A DNA stretch of 39,539 bases from positions 1 through 39,539 of IMG/VR virus record IMGVR_UViG_3300030106_005739; one strand, written 5' to 3'. A program made the translations under genes and the position numbers. Shown here piece by piece: positions 20,297-26,523 of the stretch. The stretch comes from a virus. Within the stretch, counting starts at the first letter, position 1, and each line of letters opens with the position of its first letter. The notes below the pieces were generated by a model, which made no database searches, was not told where the DNA came from, and saw nothing but the letters and a program-made list of their open reading frames with translations.

Positions 20297-20330
20297 GTAT
20301 ACCCCCTTCACCGTAGTTCAGGGGGTATAC
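20297..20330. repeat. Intergenic hairpin family, copy 1
   Basis: Arms GTATACCCCC (20297-20306) and GGGGGTATAC (20321-20330) pair perfectly over 10 bp; a T-A pair extends it. The outer five pairs differ from most copies (GTATA instead of GTGTA) and the partner arm changes to match. No T-run follows on either strand. Confidence 0.85.
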
Positions 20331-20339
20331 GTAAGGCCG

Positions 20340-21092
20340 TTATCGAGCGAACATCGTCTCGACAATTCCACGAAAGGCAATCTGGATATTATCCAGTTGG
20401 CCGAACTTGCTGGCAGTGAACTGCTCAAGCTCCGTCAGGCGCTCTTCGATTGCCTTGAACCGAAGCTCGGCGCCCTCCAGTCGCTCCATGGTCCGCCGCT
20501 CGAAGTGCTCCAGGTCGGAGACCCTCGGCTCCACTTCGGCCATGTCGCGGAGGTCGCACGGCAGGTTTGCGAGCAAATCCTGGACGCTTTGGATACTCTC
20601 CTCCACCAGTTCGACCTGGCCATGGACATACTCCTGGGTTGCCAGGTCGGCGGCAGGAAGGCCGTTCTTGCTGCCGGTGACGTTCTCGATATGCTCAAAG
20701 CGCTGCTCCAGAGCCGCCTCCACGGCGATGACGTACTCCTTGCTGGCAAACTCGGCCCGAAGGTCATCGGTGGCCACGTCGACACTGGCGTCGACATACT
20801 CGCCAACGGTTTCGGTCCAGTCTCGGTACTCAAGACACTCCTCCACCTTGTCAGAGATGTCGGTGTCGCAGAAGAAGTCCTCTGCCTGACCGTAGGCCAG
20901 TTCACTCACCCGGTGGTGGAAGTCCTCGCTGTCGAGAACGTGCTCGGTCACTAGCTCGTGGTCAGAGGGCTCGATGTCCTCCTGGACCTTCGCAACGATG
21001 GCGCTGACAAGCGCCTGAGCCAGGGACTCGATGGTCGGGTTGTCGTTCTGAGAAGGCGTCTCCGCCACGTTGTTTGTGTTTGCAGTCTCCAT
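20340..21092 (-). CDS. Large acidic coiled-coil protein
   Basis: 250 residues, ATG 21092. The N-terminus is Asn/Thr/Glu-rich. The whole protein is acidic and helical, with long heptad-like stretches (EAALEQRFEHIENVTGSKNG, VEPRVSDLEHFERRTMERLE, LRFKAIEERLTELEQFTASK). No membrane segment. It may be a scaffold, an inhibitor or a structural filament of the early phase; no family recognised. It is the longest gene of the cassette region. It does not use the common leader, although a family hairpin lies 46 bases upstream. Confidence 0.7.
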   Translation of the reverse strand: METANTNNVAETPSQNDNPTIESLAQALVSAIVAKVQEDIEPSDHELVTEHVLDSEDFHHRVSELAYGQAEDFFCDTDISDKVEECLEYRDWTETVGEYVDASVDVATDDLRAEFASKEYVIAVEAALEQRFEHIENVTGSKNGLPAADLATQEYVHGQVELVEESIQSVQDLLANLPCDLRDMAEVEPRVSDLEHFERRTMERLEGAELRFKAIEERLTELEQFTASKFGQLDNIQIAFRGIVETMFAR

Positions 21093-21137
21093 GACTGATG
21101 CTCCATTGTGTTGGGCCGTGATTGGCCAAGGGGTTAT

Positions 21138-21170
21138 GTGTACCCCCTACACTTCGTTAGGGGGGTACAC
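21138..21170. repeat. Intergenic hairpin family, copy 2
   Basis: Arms GTGTACCCCC (21138-21147) and GGGGGTACAC (21161-21170), perfect over 10 bp, followed by the family flank GTAAAGGGCT on the plus strand. It lies between the structured RNA at 21181-21353 and the 250-residue gene. Confidence 0.88.
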
Positions 21171-21180
21171 GTAAAGGGCT

Positions 21181-21353
21181 GTTCGCTCCCCTCTCCCGCG
21201 ACCCAGGAATTGAACCTGGACGGCGCTTACCCCTTATGGGGCTTGCTCCACCTTGGGACCAGCCAAGGCGCGTCTACCCGGCTCGCAACTGGTTAGGAAG
21301 CGTGCCGCCCGGACGTCTCCGGGTTCCGCCAGCCGCGGGAGAGAGGAGCGAAC
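21181..21353 (-). ncRNA. Structured tRNA-like RNA, 173 nt
   Basis: Read on the minus strand, 22-base arms (21332-21353 and 21181-21202) pair with only two G-U wobbles. Just inside the 3' arm is a perfect T-arm, 5-bp stem CCAGG/CCTGG with loop TTCAATT (21203-21219), matching the B-box consensus GGTTCRANYCC. Just inside the 5' arm is TGGCGGAACCCGGAGACG, like a leucine-tRNA D-arm. Extra hairpins lie at 21308-21323, 21251-21268 and 21230-21241. About 143 nt separate the tRNA-like acceptor ends, too long for a standard tRNA, and I cannot place a 7-base anticodon loop. It could be a chimeric or decayed tRNA or a novel structured RNA. Confidence 0.6.
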
Positions 21354-21361
21354 AATCTTTG

Positions 21362-21715
21362 TCACCTGACCCGGTACAGGCCGGGTCGAATCTCCTCCAG
21401 AGGAGAATGAAGAAAGCCCTCATCGACGTAGGGCACCTTCATCATGATGTCTCCGTTGGAGTCGCGCCAGATTTCCCAGACGAAGCCTCCACGGGGGTCG
21501 CCTGTCGAACAGACGAACCGCACAGCGGAGAGGTCTCCGTCGACGTAAATCCTGGCGCTGTTCAGCCAATCGAGGGCATCTCCCTCCTCTGGCTCGTAGC
21601 CGTTCTCGGCTGCTGGGTTGGTGATACGCACTTCGCAGTTGCCGTCATAGCACTCGATTTGTGCGCTTGTGCCGCCGTCGATGTCGGCGTCTGAGTTGAT
21701 GAGAAGGAATGACAT
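21362..21715 (-). CDS. Small acidic cassette protein
   Basis: 117 residues from ATG 21715, chosen because it directly follows the common leader AACGGAGATTCCCA; a longer frame would start inside the hairpin upstream. The protein is acidic, with a probable beta-rich core (AQIECYDGNCEVRITNPAAE, ARIYVDGDLSAVRFVCSTGD, GFVWEIWRDSNGDIMMKVPY). It resembles small soluble phage proteins of unknown function. Part of the cassette array; the tRNA-like RNA follows nine bases after its stop. Confidence 0.7.
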   Translation of the reverse strand: MSFLLINSDADIDGGTSAQIECYDGNCEVRITNPAAENGYEPEEGDALDWLNSARIYVDGDLSAVRFVCSTGDPRGGFVWEIWRDSNGDIMMKVPYVDEGFLHSPLEEIRPGLYRVR

Positions 21716-21741
21716 TGGGAATCTCCGTTGTTGTGGGGTTA

Positions 21742-21775
21742 GTACAACCCCCTCACTGTTGTTCGGGGGGTGTAC
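21742..21775. repeat. Intergenic hairpin family, copy 3
   Basis: Arms GTACAACCCCC (21742-21752) and GGGGGGTGTAC (21765-21775) pair over 11 positions with one A-G mismatch. The outer five pairs are GTACA/TGTAC. The family leader and start codon follow on the minus strand. Confidence 0.8.
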
Positions 21776-21791
21776 GTAAAGGCTGCCAGCC

Positions 21792-22109
21792 TCACTCCTT
21801 GAGCTTGGCATCCTCCGAAGGAGGCAGAATTGCCTCGAAGATGTCGTAGTTCAGGTCGTTTCGGACCTGGCGTAGCTTGTGGTGCCAGTACTTGCCGTCG
21901 TGGGTGAACCCATACCGCTCAGGCCTGTCGTCCATGCGCCAGAAGACCCAATTGGGGCATCCGGTCACGATGTCGATGACCTGCTGTTTCCACACATGCT
22001 CTGGGAGGTCGGTGTCGACCTCACACAGGGCGGCTACGATTGGGTAGGCCATGTCTGCTTGGGCGCAGTGTGCCTCCCATGCTGCTTCTTCTCTTTGCTC
22101 TCGTGTCAT
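21792..22109 (-). CDS. Small cassette protein, Trp-rich
   Basis: 105 residues, ATG 22109 after the leader AACGGAAATTCCCA (one base off the consensus GGAGA). It has helical N-terminal half (EQREEAAWEAHCAQADMAYP) and a middle with VTGCPNWVFWRMDDRPERYG followed by FTHDGKYWHHKLRQ. It is soluble and near neutral. No family recognised. It lies between hairpin copies 3 and 4 in the cassette array. Confidence 0.7.
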   Translation of the reverse strand: MTREQREEAAWEAHCAQADMAYPIVAALCEVDTDLPEHVWKQQVIDIVTGCPNWVFWRMDDRPERYGFTHDGKYWHHKLRQVRNDLNYDIFEAILPPSEDAKLKE

Positions 22110-22137
22110 TGGGAATTTCCGTTGTTGGTTGGGGTTA

Positions 22138-22170
22138 GTATCCCCCCTTCATTTCATTCAGGGGGGATAC
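22138..22170. repeat. Intergenic hairpin family, copy 4
   Basis: Arms GTATCCCCCCT (22138-22148) and AGGGGGGATAC (22160-22170), perfect 11 bp. The outer pairs GTATC/GATAC differ from neighbours at two positions, with both arms changed. Loop TCATTTCATTC. Confidence 0.88.
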
Positions 22171-22181
22171 GTAAAGGGCTG

Positions 22182-22508
22182 CTACGCTTGGTACCAGCCA
22201 GCGGGGACCATGGAAATGGGAAGGCTGTCGAGCATTTCGCCAGCCTCGTTGAAGAGGCGTCGTGCGTCTGCTTCGTGGTCGCTTCCGTCGAGCACGAACT
22301 TGCGGCACATCATGAGCGCGGTTCTCGCATATGCCTTGGCGTCTCTTGCCATCATAATGGCATCGACTTGGGCCGTTGCGCTGTCCTTGCTGGCCTTGAT
22401 TTTGGCGTGCTCCAGGTTCCAGGAAGCAGCCTCGATGATGAGGGCAGTCGCCTCCTCGGTTCCGGCGTCGAAGCCGTCGGTGTGTGAGTGTGAGCAGCAG
22501 TTTTTCAT
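22182..22508 (-). CDS. Small helical cassette protein with Cys/His N-terminus
   Basis: 108 residues from ATG 22508, directly after the common leader AACGGAGAACCCCA. The N-terminus MKNCCSHSHTDGFDAG has a Cys-Cys and two His that could bind a metal. The remainder is Ala-rich and helical (ATALIIEAASWNLEHAKIKA, AIMMARDAKAYARTALMMCR). No family recognised. It lies between hairpin copies 4 and 5. Confidence 0.7.
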   Translation of the reverse strand: MKNCCSHSHTDGFDAGTEEATALIIEAASWNLEHAKIKASKDSATAQVDAIMMARDAKAYARTALMMCRKFVLDGSDHEADARRLFNEAGEMLDSLPISMVPAGWYQA

Positions 22509-22538
22509 TGGGGTTCTCCGTTGTTGTTGTGGGGTTAA

Positions 22539-22572
22539 GTACACCCCCTACACTTCGTTTCGGGGGGTGTAC
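22539..22572. repeat. Intergenic hairpin family, copy 5
   Basis: Arms GTACACCCCC (22539-22548) and GGGGGTGTAC (22563-22572), perfect 10 bp, loop TACACTTCGTTTCG. Family flanks are present on both sides. Confidence 0.88.
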
Positions 22573-22585
22573 GTAAAGGGCTAGG

Positions 22586-22975
22586 CTACTCGTTGCATCG
22601 GTTCCGCTGTGCTTCGGCGTCAGCCTCGAACTTCAGTTCGGCCTCGATGGCATCGGTCAACTCGTCTTCGATGCCGTGAGCCCAAAGCTCGACGGCGCAA
22701 GACAGGTAGAAGACCGCGAGGCCTGACCACGATTGGCCAGCGGGCGGCTGTGGAAGCTCCCCATAGGCGTCCTCGATGAATTGAAGCACGTCGTCGCCGT
22801 GCTCGTTCATGGTCTGCTTGGCGTCATAATAGGTCACGGCGGGCATGTATGCCCCAGAGGCGCAGCCTCCTTGAATGATGGCGGCGACGTCTGCCGCAAA
22901 AATGTTTTGCTCGATGAACGCTGGCACGTCCACGAGGTCAGCGATTTCTTCGTCGTAGTTCCACAGTGTGTCCAT
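22586..22975 (-). CDS. Cassette protein of a recurrent phage hypothetical family
   Basis: 129 residues, ATG 22975 after leader AACGGAGAAAATCCC. The segment VPAFIEQNIFAADVAAIIQG and then GCASGAYMPAVTYYDAKQTM, followed by HGDDVLQFIEDAYGELP and LAVFYLSCAVELWA, is one I recall from small hypothetical proteins in many phages. It is acidic, soluble and mostly helical. Function unknown. It lies between hairpin copies 5 and 6. Confidence 0.75.
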   Translation of the reverse strand: MDTLWNYDEEIADLVDVPAFIEQNIFAADVAAIIQGGCASGAYMPAVTYYDAKQTMNEHGDDVLQFIEDAYGELPQPPAGQSWSGLAVFYLSCAVELWAHGIEDELTDAIEAELKFEADAEAQRNRCNE

Positions 22976-23006
22976 GGGATTTTCTCCGTTGTTGTTGGGG
23001 TTGTTA

Positions 23007-23039
23007 GTACACCCCCTTCGTTTTACTCAGGGGGTGTAC
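23007..23039. repeat. Intergenic hairpin family, copy 6
   Basis: Arms GTACACCCCCT (23007-23017) and AGGGGGTGTAC (23029-23039), perfect 11 bp. The full 33-base unit, loop included, is identical to copy 7, suggesting recent duplication or recombination between them. Confidence 0.9.
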
Positions 23040-23048
23040 GTAAAGGGG

Positions 23049-23279
23049 TCAGTCGGGCTGAAGCCTCGCTTGTGCATCTTTTGCCTCATGCAGTGTGGCA
23101 AGCATCATCCGATATGCGACGTGTGCATACTCACGGTCAAGCGCGACTCCCCCGGTTGGCTCTCCGGCATCCTCTGCCATGCGGAAAGACTCTTCGCACT
23201 CCAGGATGTCTTGGTATTGGCCCTCAATGGATGAGCGGAGCGCTTCGACAATCACGCTTAGTTGGTCAAAGGTAAACAT
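23049..23279 (-). CDS. Small helical cassette protein
   Basis: 76 residues from ATG 23279, which directly follows leader AACGGAGATTCCCA; the longer frame to 23333 would begin in the decayed cassette upstream. The sequence starts MFTFDQLSVIVEALRSSIEG and continues with an acidic helix and EYAHVAYRMMLATLHEAKDA. It is probably a two- or three-helix bundle. No family recognised. The cassette's own upstream hairpin is missing or decayed (23280-23336). Confidence 0.7.
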   Translation of the reverse strand: MFTFDQLSVIVEALRSSIEGQYQDILECEESFRMAEDAGEPTGGVALDREYAHVAYRMMLATLHEAKDAQARLQPD

Positions 23280-23402
23280 TGGGAATCTCCGTTGTTGTTG
23301 GTTGTTGCAGCCGGGGGGCGAGGTCCGGTTCAAGCCCTACACGCCTTGTGGGTAGGTACGCCCTTGAGTGCTCATTTCTGGTTTCTCCGGTTTTGGGGTT
23401 AA
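23280..23402 (-). pseudogene. Decayed or near-empty cassette
   Basis: Here the regular hairpin-leader-gene pattern fails. After copy 7 and a degenerate leader (CGGAGAAACCAGAA) an ATG at 23375 opens only 12 codons (MSTQGRTYPQGV) and stops at 23337. The expected hairpin before the next gene is replaced by a GC-rich stretch with a CCGG...CCGG dyad, then the normal leader for 23279. The simplest reading is a cassette that has lost its gene and most of its hairpin. A real 12-residue peptide cannot be excluded. Confidence 0.45.
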
Positions 23403-23435
23403 GTACACCCCCTTCGTTTTACTCAGGGGGTGTAC
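23403..23435. repeat. Intergenic hairpin family, copy 7
   Basis: Arms GTACACCCCCT (23403-23413) and AGGGGGTGTAC (23425-23435), perfect 11 bp; identical over all 33 bases to copy 6, about 400 bp away. Confidence 0.9.
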
Positions 23436-23442
23436 GTAAAGG

Positions 23443-23724
23443 TCAGAGCCACTCGCCGTCGAGCTTCATGGCCGTGCATCCTGCGTTGGGCATCCCGAAG
23501 TCGTAGAGGGGCTCAAGCCCGTCAAAGTCTCCGTAAATCATCCCTTCATAGTAGCAGTTCCCATCATCGTCATACATGCTGAAGCGTGTGGGATTGTCGG
23601 TCACGTCGTCGCTGGCGTTGTAGGGGCCGCTCATGCCCTTGGCATTGCAGCAGGTGCCCTCAGGCTCCCCCTCGTCTGCGATTCTGTCCTTGGTGATGGT
23701 CCACCTGTAAGGCGCTGATTTCAT
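23443..23724 (-). CDS. Small acidic cassette protein
   Basis: 93 residues, ATG 23724 after leader AACGGAAAACCCA. The sequence begins MKSAPYRWTITKDRIADEGE and contains FSMYDDDGNCYYEGMIYGDF. A strand-rich domain with this WTITKD...MYDDDG.YYEG order is one I recall in small phage proteins of unknown function. It is acidic with four cysteines. It lies between hairpin copies 7 and 8. Confidence 0.75.
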   Translation of the reverse strand: MKSAPYRWTITKDRIADEGEPEGTCCNAKGMSGPYNASDDVTDNPTRFSMYDDDGNCYYEGMIYGDFDGLEPLYDFGMPNAGCTAMKLDGEWL

Positions 23725-23752
23725 TGGGTTTTCCGTTGTTGGTTGGGGTTAA

Positions 23753-23786
23753 GTGTAACCCCCTCACTTCGTTCAGGGGGTTACAC
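23753..23786. repeat. Intergenic hairpin family, copy 8
   Basis: Arms GTGTAACCCCCT (23753-23764) and AGGGGGTTACAC (23775-23786), perfect 12 bp. An extra A-T pair relative to other copies is matched in both arms. The TAA stop of the mini-gene 23781-23891 falls inside the arm. Confidence 0.9.
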
Positions 23787-23891
23787 GTAAGGTCTCGGCT
23801 CTGGCGTCTTGTCTGTACCGGGCGACGCCACCCGCTGGTCTGGGGATTTTAGGGTGAGCGGCGACCAGCCTGCTGCTCGGTGGTGGTCCAT
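23781..23891 (-). CDS. Mini-gene of 36 residues in the cassette array
   Basis: ATG 23891 follows a perfect copy of the common leader (AACAACGGAGATTCCCA), which strongly suggests translation. The peptide starts MDHHRAAGWSPLTLKS and ends TPEPRPYV. Its stop TAA (23781-23783) lies inside the arm of hairpin copy 8, so translating ribosomes would open that hairpin. It is basic and proline-rich with no recognised motif. It is too short for common ORF cut-offs. It could be a remnant, but leader and spacing match active cassettes. Confidence 0.55.
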   Translation of the reverse strand: MDHHRAAGWSPLTLKSPDQRVASPGTDKTPEPRPYV

Positions 23892-23922
23892 TGGGAATCT
23901 CCGTTGTTGGTTGGGTTGGTTA

Positions 23923-23956
23923 GTGTACCCCTCTCGTTTTACTTCGAGGGGTACAC
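23923..23956. repeat. Intergenic hairpin family, copy 9
   Basis: Arms GTGTACCCCTC (23923-23933) and GAGGGGTACAC (23946-23956), perfect 11 bp. The core CCCCTC/GAGGGG replaces CCCCC/GGGGG with matching changes in both arms. Confidence 0.9.
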
Positions 23957-23965
23957 GTAAGGGCC

Positions 23966-24565
23966 TCAGTCGAGGAGTCGCCGCCTCTCGTGAAGGGTTC
24001 CGAGGTACAGGCGTGCGGCCTCAATCCACCACCGGGGCTCAACCTCGCTGTATTGCTTGCGACGCTCCGCCTTGCAGGCCCGTTGGAAGTCGGCTTGGGC
24101 CGCCTTCTTCAGCCGTGCCACCGTCTTGTAGGCGTCGTTGTACTGACCGGGGAACCCGGTCACGTAGTCAGCCTTGACCGCTCGGAGCGAGGCGCTGTCT
24201 CTCATGAGAGAGAAAACGTTGTCCCGGCAGAATTCAAGCACATCCGCAGTTGTGGCCCCAAGGGCCACGCACTCGTTAGCCACGGCCCGGAACTTCTCGC
24301 GCTCGGCGTTCTTCTCGGCCTGGAGCCGCTTCGCGAGGCGGACAGCGCCCTCAAGGTCCTTGAGTCGGCCGTTTTTTGTCTCGTCGTAGCCGTCCTCGCG
24401 CTCCTTGATGTAGGTCAGTTGGCGGCGGAGCCTGTCCAGTTCCCAGGACCGGAACCGCGGCCAAAGGCCGCCGCCAATGCCCAAGAGGCGCTTGTGCTCT
24501 TTGAGCAGGGCCTCGATGCGGTCCATTTCCGCTTGGTCCATTCGATTGCAGCGTCTTTTTGCCAT
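23966..24565 (-). CDS. Basic coiled-coil cassette protein
   Basis: 199 residues, ATG 24565 after leader AACGGAGATTCCC. It is Arg/Lys/Glu-rich with long helices (MDRIEALLKEHKRLLGIGGG, DLEGAVRLAKRLQAEKNAER, KTVARLKKAAQADFQRACKA). The N-terminus MAKRRCNRMDQ is basic. No enzyme motif or membrane segment. Its basic charge sets it apart from its acidic neighbours and could allow nucleic-acid binding. No family recognised. It lies between hairpin copies 9 and 10. Confidence 0.7.
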   Translation of the reverse strand: MAKRRCNRMDQAEMDRIEALLKEHKRLLGIGGGLWPRFRSWELDRLRRQLTYIKEREDGYDETKNGRLKDLEGAVRLAKRLQAEKNAEREKFRAVANECVALGATTADVLEFCRDNVFSLMRDSASLRAVKADYVTGFPGQYNDAYKTVARLKKAAQADFQRACKAERRKQYSEVEPRWWIEAARLYLGTLHERRRLLD

Positions 24566-24592
24566 GGGAATCTCCGTTGTTTTGGTGGGTTA

Positions 24593-24625
24593 GTGTACCC
24601 CTCTCACTTTCAGTGAGGGGTACAC
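24593..24625. repeat. Intergenic hairpin family, copy 10
   Basis: Arms GTGTACCCCTC (24593-24603) and GAGGGGTACAC (24615-24625), perfect 11 bp; an alternative extension CACT/AGTG exists in the loop. Family flanks are present. Confidence 0.9.
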
Positions 24626-24635
24626 GTAAAGGGGG

Positions 24636-24992
24636 CTACCACTCTTCGTTTTCCCCCATGTGCTTGACGGGGCAGAAGAGGCCTCGTAGGCCTCGACGGG
24701 TTCCGGTCCACACATAGGTGGGCCACAGGACGCCGTTGTGACGGTTGGTTGCCAGAAATCCCTTTGGGATAAGGTTCTCAGAGCCCCACCCGTATGCTCC
24801 ATCGGTTACACAGTAACCCTCGTGAGTCGTGATGACTTCCACCCCTTCGGGGGTGTGGGTGATGACGTATCGGAACAGGCTTGAGCCGTCATGGTCGTTC
24901 CGCCAGTCGTCAGTGAACCGGATGGTCTCCCCTTCGGGGACAGTGATTTTCACAGGGGAGCCGTTGACGGTTTTCCAGAAGCGGTAGTTCAT
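24636..24992 (-). CDS. Cassette protein, beta-rich
   Basis: 118 residues, ATG 24992 directly after leader AACGGAGAATCCCA. The sequence alternates short strands and turns: MNYRFWKTVNGSPVKITVPE, ETIRFTDDWRNDHDG, VITHTPEGVEVITTHEGYCV, GVLWPTYVWTG. It is likely a small beta barrel or sandwich, soluble and without catalytic motif. No family recognised. It lies between hairpin copies 10 and 11. Confidence 0.7.
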   Translation of the reverse strand: MNYRFWKTVNGSPVKITVPEGETIRFTDDWRNDHDGSSLFRYVITHTPEGVEVITTHEGYCVTDGAYGWGSENLIPKGFLATNRHNGVLWPTYVWTGTRRGLRGLFCPVKHMGENEEW

Positions 24993-25021
24993 TGGGATTC
25001 TCCGTTGGTTTGGGTTGGTAA

Positions 25022-25054
25022 GTGTACCCCCTTCACTCTGTTCAGGGGGTACAC
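25022..25054. repeat. Intergenic hairpin family, copy 11
   Basis: Arms GTGTACCCCCT (25022-25032) and AGGGGGTACAC (25044-25054), perfect 11 bp, loop TCACTCTGTTC. Leader and ATG 24992 follow on the minus strand. Confidence 0.9.
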
Positions 25055-25064
25055 GTAAGGGGTC

Positions 25065-25283
25065 TCAGAATCCGAATTCGGCCCTTGCCTGCTCCAACAT
25101 GTACCCAACCTCGGCTTCATGGGTATCGATGGCATCTTCGATGTTTTCAGGGTCCATTACATATCCACAGAGGTAGGCGTATTCTCCGGTGGTCCACAGT
25201 TCGCCGTTGGCGAACAGTTGGTAGGTTTTGGTTCCGCGCTTCGTGGTCTTCACTGGCTTCGTTGACGGCTTCGTGTCACTCAT
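25065..25283 (-). CDS. Small cassette protein
   Basis: 72 residues from ATG 25283, directly after leader AACGGAGAATCCCA; an upstream in-frame Met at 25376 lies beyond the hairpin and is not used. The N-terminal 20 residues are basic (MSDTKPSTKPVKTTKRGTKT). The remainder is acidic and aromatic (YQLFANGELWTTGEYAYLCG, then EAEVGYMLEQARAEFGF). No family recognised. It lies between hairpin copies 11 and 12. Confidence 0.7.
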   Translation of the reverse strand: MSDTKPSTKPVKTTKRGTKTYQLFANGELWTTGEYAYLCGYVMDPENIEDAIDTHEAEVGYMLEQARAEFGF

Positions 25284-25312
25284 TGGGATTCTCCGTTGGT
25301 TTTTGGGGTTTA

Positions 25313-25345
25313 GTGTACCCCCCTCACTTTGTTCGGGGGGTACAC
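25313..25345. repeat. Intergenic hairpin family, copy 12
   Basis: Arms GTGTACCCCCC (25313-25323) and GGGGGGTACAC (25335-25345), perfect 11 bp. The sixth C-G pair replaces the T-A of other copies in both arms. Confidence 0.9.
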
Positions 25346-25354
25346 GTAAAGGGC

Positions 25355-25681
25355 TCATCGGAAGTAGCAGGAACATCGCTCGATGTGGCCCTTGCTATGC
25401 AAGAGCTTCTCGGTCTCATCGTAGTCCTCGTCCGTAAGCTCTGCCGGGTGCGGGGTGCCGCAGTTCTCGCACTCTGTCATCCCACGCTCTTGGAAGATGG
25501 CGATGAGGGGAGCCAGGTACCCTGGGTTGTCGTAGTCCTCGGGAATCATCTTGGCCTTCTCGGCCAAGTTGGCGAGGTCTTCGGGGGTCATGTGGTCGTT
25601 CAGCGAAAGCTGATAGGCACAGTTGAGCAGTCGCTGGTCCATGGTGGGCCACATCATCGCTTTGGTTCGTGCATCGTACAT
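25355..25681 (-). CDS. Cassette protein with four-Cys zinc-like motif
   Basis: 108 residues from ATG 25681, following leader AACGGAGAAGTCCCA; the longer frame would start inside a hairpin. The N-terminal 70 residues are helical (DQRLLNCAYQLSLNDHMTPE, DLANLAEKAK). Then comes TECENCGTPHPAEL with a CxxC pair and, near the end, ERCSCYF with a CxC. Together these four Cys, with a nearby His, could bind one zinc ion. No known domain recognised. It lies between hairpin copies 12 and 13. Confidence 0.7.
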   Translation of the reverse strand: MYDARTKAMMWPTMDQRLLNCAYQLSLNDHMTPEDLANLAEKAKMIPEDYDNPGYLAPLIAIFQERGMTECENCGTPHPAELTDEDYDETEKLLHSKGHIERCSCYFR

Positions 25682-25719
25682 TGGGACTTCTCCGTTGGGG
25701 TTGTTTTTGGTTGGGTTAA

Positions 25720-25753
25720 GTGTACCCCTCTCACTATCGTTCGAGGGGTACAC
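25720..25753. repeat. Intergenic hairpin family, copy 13
   Basis: Arms GTGTACCCCTC (25720-25730) and GAGGGGTACAC (25743-25753), perfect 11 bp, loop TCACTATCGTTC. It shares the CCCCTC core with copies 9 and 10. Confidence 0.9.
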
Positions 25754-25762
25754 GTAAAGGGG

Positions 25763-26017
25763 CTAGGGGAGGCAGAGGTAGAGGGCGAGCCAGGCATCTT
25801 CGATGCCGTATTCGTCCCACATGTGGTCGACGTCACCGGGACTGACGACCCCTATTGCGACGTCGTGAGCGTTGACCCACTGGACGACCACGGAGAGCGT
25901 GCTCTCCGAGGTCAGGGCCGGGTAGGTTCGGGCGAAGAGGCACCCGGAGTCGCGGCCGATGCGGTTGGCGGCGGCGGCCAGGGCTCGGCGGTCGGAGGGG
26001 TCGAGTTCGGTCAGCAT
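25763..26017 (-). CDS. Small cassette protein
   Basis: 84 residues, ATG 26017 after leader GACGGAGAAATCCC. It starts MLTELDPSDRRALAAAANRI and continues GRDSGCLFARTYPALTSES, then VVVQWVNAHDVAIGVVSPGD. It is acidic toward the end, with Trp-rich HMWDEYGIEDAWLALYLCLP. Probably a small mixed alpha/beta domain; no family recognised. It lies between hairpin copies 13 and 14. Confidence 0.7.
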   Translation of the reverse strand: MLTELDPSDRRALAAAANRIGRDSGCLFARTYPALTSESTLSVVVQWVNAHDVAIGVVSPGDVDHMWDEYGIEDAWLALYLCLP

Positions 26018-26047
26018 GGGATTTCTCCGTCGGTTTGGGGGGGGTTA

Positions 26048-26079
26048 ACACTCTCCCCCCACTAAAGTGGGGAGAGTGT
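26048..26079. repeat. Intergenic hairpin family, copy 14 (divergent)
   Basis: Arms ACACTCTCCCC (26048-26058) and GGGGAGAGTGT (26069-26079) pair over 11 bp, and ACT/AGT can extend the stem past a CC bulge. The sequence differs from the other copies at most outer positions, yet pairing is kept. Confidence 0.88.
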
Positions 26080-26091
26080 GTAAGGGTCGGC

Positions 26092-26394
26092 CTAGCTGAG
26101 GTCGGCCAGCAGCCAGTCGGCGACATCGCCAGCCGTAGGCTGGCCTTCGGCCGGAGCTTCGCTCCAGTCGTAGTCGTCCCAACTGACCCAAGGGTCAGTT
26201 ACGGGGCAGAAGCGCCGGATGTCAGCCAGGGTTTCCCCAGCCTTCGGCTGGTCTGCCGACTCCCCGTGAACTCCCGAAGGGAGTTCGACCTCCTGCTTCT
26301 GGCTCATTCGCCAGGCTTCGCCTTCCAGGCCTCGCTTCGCAGCTTCAGCCATAGCCTCGAACATGTCGCTGGTAATCTCGGATGCTTTCAGCAT
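26092..26394 (-). CDS. Small acidic cassette protein
   Basis: 100 residues from ATG 26394, directly after leader AACGGAGAAATCCC; the longer frame to 26463 lacks a ribosome-binding site. The N-terminal half is helical (MLKASEITSDMFEAMAEAAK, RGLEGEAWRMSQKQE). The C-terminal half is acidic with repeated Trp (CPVTDPWVSWDDYDWSEAPA) and ends DVADWLLADLS. No family recognised. Strong acidity would suit interaction with a basic host protein, but nothing shows this. Confidence 0.7.
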   Translation of the reverse strand: MLKASEITSDMFEAMAEAAKRGLEGEAWRMSQKQEVELPSGVHGESADQPKAGETLADIRRFCPVTDPWVSWDDYDWSEAPAEGQPTAGDVADWLLADLS

Positions 26395-26414
26395 GGGATT
26401 TCTCCGTTGTGTTG

Positions 26415-26482
26415 CTCCCCTTCGGGGAGGTTGAGCTTTGTGCTCTGGTCCAGTTCCAAGCATAGCTTAGCTATGGACCAGA
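26415..26482. other. Compound hairpin leader between the first two early genes
   Basis: Three dyads lie in the gap before ATG 26394. TCTGGTCC (26444-26451) pairs with GGACCAGA (26475-26482) over 8 bp and encloses CATAGC/GCTATG (26461-26466, 26470-26475; one G shared between the two). A short CTCCC/GGGAG stem with a CTTCG loop sits at 26415-26429. This gap is larger and more structured than the other intergenic gaps of the array. Confidence 0.55.
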
Positions 26483-26486
26483 ACAC

Positions 26487-26504
26487 CCCCCCCTAAAGGG
26501 GGGG
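26487..26504. repeat. Intergenic hairpin family, copy 15 (core only)
   Basis: CCCCCCC (26487-26493) and GGGGGGG (26498-26504) with loop TAAA. Only the C-run/G-run core of the family is kept; outer arms and the GTAAAGG flank are absent. It follows the stop of the first early gene by 20 bases. Confidence 0.6.
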
Positions 26505-26523
26505 CCTGGCTATGTGCGGGGGC

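What the first reader, a model, noticed from the sequence alone, without database searches (positions are those of the whole stretch)
20297..26504. Array of co-varying intergenic hairpins between small minus-strand genes
Fifteen gaps or leaders carry the same kind of hairpin, 10-12 bp with a C-run/G-run core. The outer pairs differ between copies (GTGTA/TACAC, GTACA/TGTAC, GTATA/TATAC, GTATC/GATAC, ACACTCT/AGAGTGT). The core also varies (CCCCC, CCCCTC, CCCCCC), with the partner arm changed to match in nearly every case. Matching changes are strong evidence that pairing in RNA is selected. None is followed by a T-run, so simple intrinsic termination is unlikely. The layout recalls the start-associated sequences of Cluster K mycobacteriophages and the RNase III sites between T7 early genes, but these sequences match neither that I recall. 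This may be an undescribed RNA control or processing element.
Basis: partly seen in the sequence, partly recalled or inferred. Interest (0 to 1): 0.88.

Follow-up and report, generated by a model that had tools for sequence, protein, structure and literature searches.

The report
Capped gene-boundary hairpins in phages
A phage places the same kind of hairpin, with a free-to-vary stem but a fixed G·A-mismatch cap, before nearly every small early gene; the same hairpin turns up in dozens of other phages and is not in the RNA-family database, so it looks like a common but uncatalogued gene-boundary signal.

Summary
Shuffles give at most 1 where 13 are found.

The conserved part is the cap, not the C/G run: stem, tandem G·A mismatch (U-GA / GA-A), 2 bp, 3-5 nt loop. 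Stems change completely, with compensation. The hairpin fills 14 of 16 gaps over 50 nt in the leftward early cluster and no overlapping or near-touching junction.

It is not confined to this phage. A GA/GA pattern hits 41 IMG/VR contigs; a matched AG/AG control hits 0. Further copies with other stems lie on the same strand in 26 contigs. Cultured phages HMO-2011 and CRP-1 carry weak but well-placed copies. No Rfam family reaches threshold.

Best explanation: an mRNA gene-boundary element (processing or stabilisation) ahead of an A/C-rich leader and Shine-Dalgarno. It is not a cluster K SAS/ESAS. Mechanism unproven.

The parts
26048..26079 (-). hairpin copy, stem ACACTCTCCCC/GGGGAGAGTGT; cap Watson-Crick variant
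25720..25753 (-). hairpin copy, GTGTACCCCTC [GA]AC(GATA)GT[GA] GAGGGGTACAC
25313..25345 (-). hairpin copy, GTGTACCCCCC [GA]AC(AAA)GT[GA]; RNAfold -24.9 kcal/mol with UUUA/UAAA lower helix and bulged C
25022..25054 (-). hairpin copy, GTGTACCCCCT [GA]AC(AGA)GT[GA]
24593..24625 (-). hairpin copy, cap replaced by Watson-Crick pairs (CTCACT GAA AGTGAG)
23923..23956 (-). hairpin copy, 3x2 cap GAA/GA; precedes a short ORF of about 30 codons
23753..23786 (-). hairpin copy, GTGTAACCCCCT/AGGGGGTTACAC
23403..23435 (-). hairpin copy, GTACACCCCCT [GA]GT(AAA)AC[GA] (inner pairs swapped); precedes a 12-codon ORF
23007..23039 (-). hairpin copy, GTACACCCCCT [GA]GT(AAA)AC[GA]
22539..22572 (-). hairpin copy, GTACACCCCC/GGGGGTGTAC, altered cap
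22138..22170 (-). hairpin copy, GTATCCCCCCT [GA]AT(GAA)AT[GA]
21739..21774 (-). hairpin copy, GTACACCCCCC/GGGGGTTGTAC with one C·T mismatch (coordinates approximate)
21138..21170 (-). hairpin copy, GTGTACCCCC/GGGGGTACAC, altered cap; its gap also holds the tRNA-like element
20297..20330 (-). hairpin copy, GTATACCCCCT [GA]AC(TACG)GT[GA] with a UNCG-type loop
20268..26091 (-). modular gaps: of 16 gaps over 50 nt in the leftward cluster 26703-15611, 14 hold the hairpin (13 of these gaps are 70-81 nt, one is 269 nt); overlapping or near-touching junctions lack it; one 28-nt gap holds the 16151 copy
   Evidence: gene starts chosen by hand
21713..25299 (-). start-associated sequence ACAACGGAGAWTCCCAATG at gene starts downstream of the hairpins (10 matches in the window with up to 3 mismatches, 0 expected)

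Best explanation
The element is a reusable gene-boundary cassette of phage early operons: stop codon, hairpin, A/C-rich unstructured leader, Shine-Dalgarno, start codon. In the transcript it folds into a duplex of roughly 17-26 bp (about two helical turns), often with a single bulge, capped by a tandem G·A mismatch, two more pairs and a 3-5 nt loop. Most likely it acts after transcription: the stable stem separates neighbouring translation units and forms a processing or end-protection site (host RNase III is the obvious candidate enzyme, a protected 5' or 3' end the alternative), while the A/C-rich leader keeps the ribosome site open. Shown here: the structure, its compensatory change, the cap invariance, position and polarity, and recurrence across phages. 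Inferred: transcription as one mRNA, processing or stabilisation, the enzyme, and the role of the cap.
For: Covariation in the window and across 14 hairpins from four phage lineages: 99.4% of cells pair, score 0.974 against 0.298 shuffled, both GA dinucleotides invariant. With 122 matches (80 distinct) 96.3% of cells pair. Of all 2x2 internal-loop hairpins in 989 kb of loci, GA/GA (22) and its reverse complement TC/TC (21) dominate; the next type has 6. GA/GA pattern 41 viral contigs against 0 for the AG/AG control. Same-strand Shine-Dalgarno/ATG ORF downstream: 95/103, opposite strand 7/103, random positions 152/610; median 32 nt to ATG; leader 42% A, 28% C, 11% G. Stem median 21 bp by RNAfold. 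Hairpin in 14 of 16 gaps over 50 nt and in no overlapping junction. All 32 loci with two or more copies carry them on one strand only and with different stems. No terminator call at the hairpins on their strand.
Against: No G·U pairs among 946 aligned cells is unusual for an RNA-only constraint. No transcript data. Bacterial RNase III is not known to need a specific apical cap (general knowledge), so cap conservation is unexplained by that enzyme alone. Gene direction and replication direction cannot be separated within one phage.
Confidence: 0.45

Rival explanations
1. DNA-level element: a dispersed palindrome (REP-like or Bpu-like, or a T4 PeSL-like shuffling cassette) spread and recombined as DNA, its arms kept perfect by template switching or because a single-stranded DNA hairpin is recognised. 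Placement between genes reflects tolerance and use as a recombination joint.
For: 0 G·U and 2 A·C among 946 aligned cells. L116 and L112 have nearly identical flanks (0.97 and 1.00) but a compensated C-G to G-C flip with no intermediate. The cap matches the Cycas mitochondrial Bpu consensus CCTGAGCGTAGCGAAGG, described as mobile (PMC8297867). Identical copies recur within one contig (L121).
Against: Strict polarity relative to genes (95 against 7 of 103), spacing to the start codon, and the A/C-rich leader are not expected of a neutral DNA repeat; arm homogenisation alone would also erase the G·A mismatches.
Confidence: 0.25
2. Binding site for a phage- or host-encoded RNA-binding protein that reads the G·A cap and co-regulates early genes (translational repressor, antiterminator such as nut/put, or stability factor).
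For: The cap is invariant while stems are free, which fits a protein reading the apical motif on a duplex handle; many genes of one operon share it.
Against: No candidate RNA-binding protein was identified among the window's early proteins that were searched. The pyrimidine flank CCTTTAC is not a convincing boxA.
Confidence: 0.2
3. Intrinsic terminators or attenuators.
For: Stable GC-rich hairpins just after stop codons in the window.
Against: No T-run follows; A/C-rich leaders follow instead; no terminator called at them on their strand; AT-only stems in L058/L059; one copy lies across the end of a coding gene.
Confidence: 0.05
4. Palindromic double-stranded DNA operators or promoters read by a protein, as proposed for cluster K ESAS.
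For: Within one phage the arms resemble one another and sit upstream of genes.
Against: Stems differ completely between copies and phages while complementarity is kept; an operator should keep its sequence. No sigma-70-like promoter pairs at the hairpins.
Confidence: 0.05

Closest known systems
Extended start-associated sequences (SAS/ESAS) of cluster K mycobacteriophages (PMC3203893)
   Same: Repeated, one orientation, upstream of start codons of small non-structural genes in unusually long gaps, inverted repeats with a short spacer plus a conserved start sequence.
   Different: The authors state that ESAS arm changes do not generally support RNA pairing; here they do. The SAS consensus is absent; this phage has its own start motif.
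RNase III sites between T7 early genes (from general knowledge)
   Same: Intercistronic hairpins in a polycistronic early mRNA, duplex of about 20 bp.
   Different: No cleavage data; the tandem G·A cap and per-gene repetition are not a T7 feature that I recall.
T4-type PeSL mobile regulatory cassettes (Arbiol 2010; text not held, cited from memory)
   Same: Stem-loop cassette between small plastic early genes, probably shuffled with them.
   Different: PeSLs pair a terminator stem-loop with an early promoter; no T-run and no sigma-70-like promoter was found here.
Bpu elements of Cycas mitochondria (PMC8297867) and similar dispersed hairpins
   Same: Same cap layout, T[GA]GC(GTA)GC[GA]A, at the tip of a stem.
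   Different: Most Bpu copies are identical or nearly so, carry AAGG terminal repeats and proliferate; phage stems vary freely and sit at gene starts.
GA-cis RNA, RF02987
   Same: Sub-threshold match over one hairpin.
   Different: 23.4 bits against a gathering score of 34.7, E 0.16-0.99, one copy only: not a member.

Membership tests
Cluster K SAS/ESAS | 13-bp GGGATAGGAGCCC near start codons | tested here: not met
   11 matches with up to 3 mismatches against 14.2 expected; none in the start-codon position of the array's genes
Cluster K SAS/ESAS | 17-bp inverted repeats of conserved sequence whose arm changes do not pair | tested here: not met
   Arms change together; the paper reports the opposite for ESAS
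T7-type RNase III processing site | Intercistronic duplex of about two helical turns | tested here: met
   Median 21 bp enclosing the centre, range 10-29; in gaps
T7-type RNase III processing site | Cleavage by RNase III | not testable with these tools
   Needs RNA-end mapping or in vitro cleavage
Intrinsic terminator | GC-rich hairpin followed by a T-run | tested here: not met
   No call at the array hairpins on their own strand
T4 PeSL cassette | Early promoter coupled to the stem-loop | tested here: not met
   Only two sigma-70-like sites in 12.8 kb, none at a hairpin; promoters of other types not covered
Any Rfam 15 family | Gathering score | tested here: not met
   No match in the window above threshold; only tRNAs in 17 related loci
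Bpu/REP-like dispersed repeat | Tandem G·A cap on a stem | tested here: met
   Cap identical in layout to the Cycas Bpu consensus, compared by eye
Bpu/REP-like dispersed repeat | Near-identical copies, terminal AAGG repeats or an associated transposase | tested here: inconclusive
   Stems vary and the flanks printed show no shared AAGG repeats; a transposase was not searched for systematically

The most novel reading that the evidence does not exclude
A widespread, undescribed class of phage RNA element: a capped two-turn hairpin, recognised through its tandem G·A tip by one conserved factor, that punctuates early polycistronic mRNAs and travels with small accessory genes as a plug-in expression cassette across unrelated phages.
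Probability: 0.35. Interest if true: 0.85.

Novelty: new variant of a known kind. Interest (0 to 1): 0.72.

Why it matters
Early phage genes are the least understood part of phage genomes. A structural signal that marks their boundaries gives a handle for finding such genes, for calling their starts, and for testing how phages process or insulate early mRNA. Weak but well-placed copies in cultured HMO-2011 (SAR116) and CRP-1 (Roseobacter) make it testable. The rule 'cap fixed, stem free, no wobble' also poses a clean question about whether RNA or DNA pairing is maintained.

Tried and rejected
DNA similarity of the array to phage records: none. DnaB-helicase relatives, 7 loci: no array. Terminase relatives (62-94% identity): no capped hairpin in the DNA held; the two closest do not cover the array; L017 has two uncapped intergenic hairpins with their own shared flanks. 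Exact-stem pattern in IMG/VR: 0. Flank-plus-loop pattern gave 8 contigs, 7 without a model match, 1 (L032) the key relative. The GC-rich hairpin as a blastn query against phage records: only chance-level hits. Genome contigs: 34 pattern hits in 257 Gb, near the chance level I estimate; mostly single copies; L180 looks like a phage contig, L158 probably cellular. Cultured phages screened: only HMO-2011 and CRP-1 positive, weakly (E 0.006-0.014). Papers giving the hairpin sequence: none in phages. Lambda nut/boxA idea: dropped, poor boxA match by eye. N4-type DNA-hairpin promoters: dropped, no large virion RNA polymerase ORF.
Full report
1. What was checked. The window is a 39,539-base IMG/VR virus record whose last CDS runs into the sequence of its first bases. 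It encodes a P22-like portal, a terminase large subunit, a DnaB helicase, a Gp157-family protein and a protein of an exonuclease/annealing family. The finding lies in a leftward cluster of small genes (26.7 to 15.6 kb) upstream of the replication genes.

2. On the minus strand the region has 13 inverted repeats with arms of 10 or more where shuffles give at most 1. The covariance model of the 15 aligned copies, run with filters off, recovers those 15 and no further clear one.

3. Anatomy. Each copy has a stem of 9-12 bp, usually extended below a bulged C by UUA/UAA pairs, and a tip that reads U-GA-NN-loop-N'N'-GA-A: a tandem G·A mismatch, two pairs, then 3-5 nt. The two inner pairs co-vary (AC/GT, GT/AC, AT/AT), and loops include GAA, AAA, AGA, TACG, GATA and TTTA. 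Two copies replace the G·A tandem by Watson-Crick pairs. After the hairpin come an A/C-rich leader and a conserved start sequence ACAACGGAGAWTCCCAATG (10 matches, 0 expected). The gaps are modular: of 16 gaps over 50 nt, 14 hold the hairpin, and 13 of those 14 are 70-81 nt long (the other is 269 nt). The two without it are 127 and 54 nt. Junctions that overlap or nearly touch never hold it (gene starts chosen by hand).

4. Relatives. Proteins of this phage gave few relatives, none with the array in the DNA held. A pattern of flanks and loop, with a free stem, found contig L032 (IMGVR 3300006916_007999), an unrelated 41% GC phage fragment with hairpins of the same kind before its small genes. 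Relatives of its GP88-family gene added L058/L059 (L059 30% GC; AT-only stems, tips GA-AT-GTAT-AT-GA) and L062/L074/L075. Fourteen hairpins from these four lineages align with both GA dinucleotides invariant and every stem pair changing on both sides: 99.4% paired, covariation 0.974 against 0.298 for shuffles and at most 0.391 for slid partners.

5. Specificity. In 989 kb of loci, hairpins with a 2x2 internal loop below two pairs are GA/GA 22 times (TC/TC 21, its reverse complement); no other type exceeds 6. In loci chosen by protein only, the figures are 14, 13 and 6. Scanning IMG/VR for CCCCTGAACN{3,4}GTGAAGGGG gave 41 contigs; the same pattern with AG/AG gave 0. Model R2 then found further copies with other stems in these contigs. 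All 26 pattern-selected contigs with two or more copies have them on one strand and with different stems; so do all 6 loci not selected by the stem pattern. Cultured HMO-2011 (SAR116) has two weak matches and CRP-1 (Roseobacter) one, all before Shine-Dalgarno/ATG sequences.

6. Position and polarity. Of 103 copies with enough flank, 95 are followed within 140 nt by a Shine-Dalgarno/ATG ORF on the same strand and 7 on the opposite strand; random positions give 152 of 610. Median distance to ATG is 32 nt; the leader is 42% A and 11% G. RNAfold gives a median of 21 bp enclosing the centre.

7. The awkward result. Among 946 aligned cells in 80 distinct hairpins there are 911 Watson-Crick pairs, 0 G·U and 2 A·C; in hairpins not found through the stem pattern, 0 G·U of 360. 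The model was trained on perfect stems, which biases against wobble somewhat, but other mismatches were recovered. RNAfold on wider flanks counts 21 G·U of 1955 pairs. RNA elements normally tolerate wobble. So co-variation alone does not prove RNA selection: a requirement for perfect duplex, a DNA hairpin, or template switching between arms are open. L116 and L112, with nearly identical flanks, differ by one compensated C-G to G-C flip. Single-strand DNA of either strand also folds.

8. Mechanism. Sense-strand placement between stop and start, a two-turn duplex, and the unstructured leader fit a post-transcriptional gene-boundary element: processing (RNase III as candidate) or end protection, plus insulation of ribosome sites. 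The G·A cap may serve as a folding nucleus or a recognition point. None of this has been measured. Main rivals are a DNA-level dispersed cassette and a protein-binding regulatory hairpin.

9. Compared with the known. Cluster K ESAS share the layout, but their authors report that arm changes do not support pairing, and the SAS consensus is absent here. T4 PeSLs couple a stem-loop and a promoter (from memory; the paper is not held); no promoter was found here. The tip matches the mobile Bpu element of Cycas mitochondria, perhaps by convergence on a stable cap. Rfam has no family above threshold. I found no paper describing it, in a library limited to open licences.

10. Limits. Only one negative-control pattern could be scanned; hosts of most contigs are unknown; gene calls are by ORF and Shine-Dalgarno; E-values of the models are rough; no expression data exist.

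Noticed in passing
window 21180-21360 (-): tRNA-like element inside a 269-nt gap: T-arm CCAGG-TTCAATT-CCTGG next to a 7-bp acceptor-like stem that continues into a stem of about 23 bp, with extra arms between; RNAfold -108 kcal/mol, z -6.2. ARAGORN finds no tRNA at default settings and no convincing tRNA or tmRNA at lowered thresholds.
   Followed up: partly
L182 (HMO-2011) 1-70 and 1200-1300; L185 (CRP-1) 990-1090; L145; L075: In these phages a second small palindrome (GTCCGctgtCGGAC, GTCCAatgtTGGAC or GTCCAacatTGGAC) lies between the capped hairpin and the Shine-Dalgarno, with its own matched arm changes.
   Followed up: no
L017 2953-2985 and 1158-1189 (-): The 62% terminase relative has two intergenic hairpins of 13-14 bp without the G·A cap, sharing TTAGCGC and CGGTG flanks with each other.
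   Followed up: partly
window 26397-26523 (-): Leader of an early gene carrying a chain of different hairpins (C7-TTTA-G7, TCTGGTCCA..TGGACCAGA, CTCCCC-GAA-GGGGAG) instead of the capped one.
   Followed up: no
window 23334-23370 (-): A 12-codon ORF (MSTQGRTYPQGV) with its own capped hairpin and Shine-Dalgarno-like sequence, a possible leader peptide or micro-gene.
   Followed up: no
L170, L174, L175, L178: Spirochaete MAG contigs carry CCCCTGAAC..GTGAAGGGG hairpins with shared GC-rich flanks, perhaps a chromosomal repeat with the same cap.
   Followed up: no
window 1 and 39539: The record's end repeats its start within one gene, consistent with a complete circularly permuted or terminally redundant genome.
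   Followed up: no
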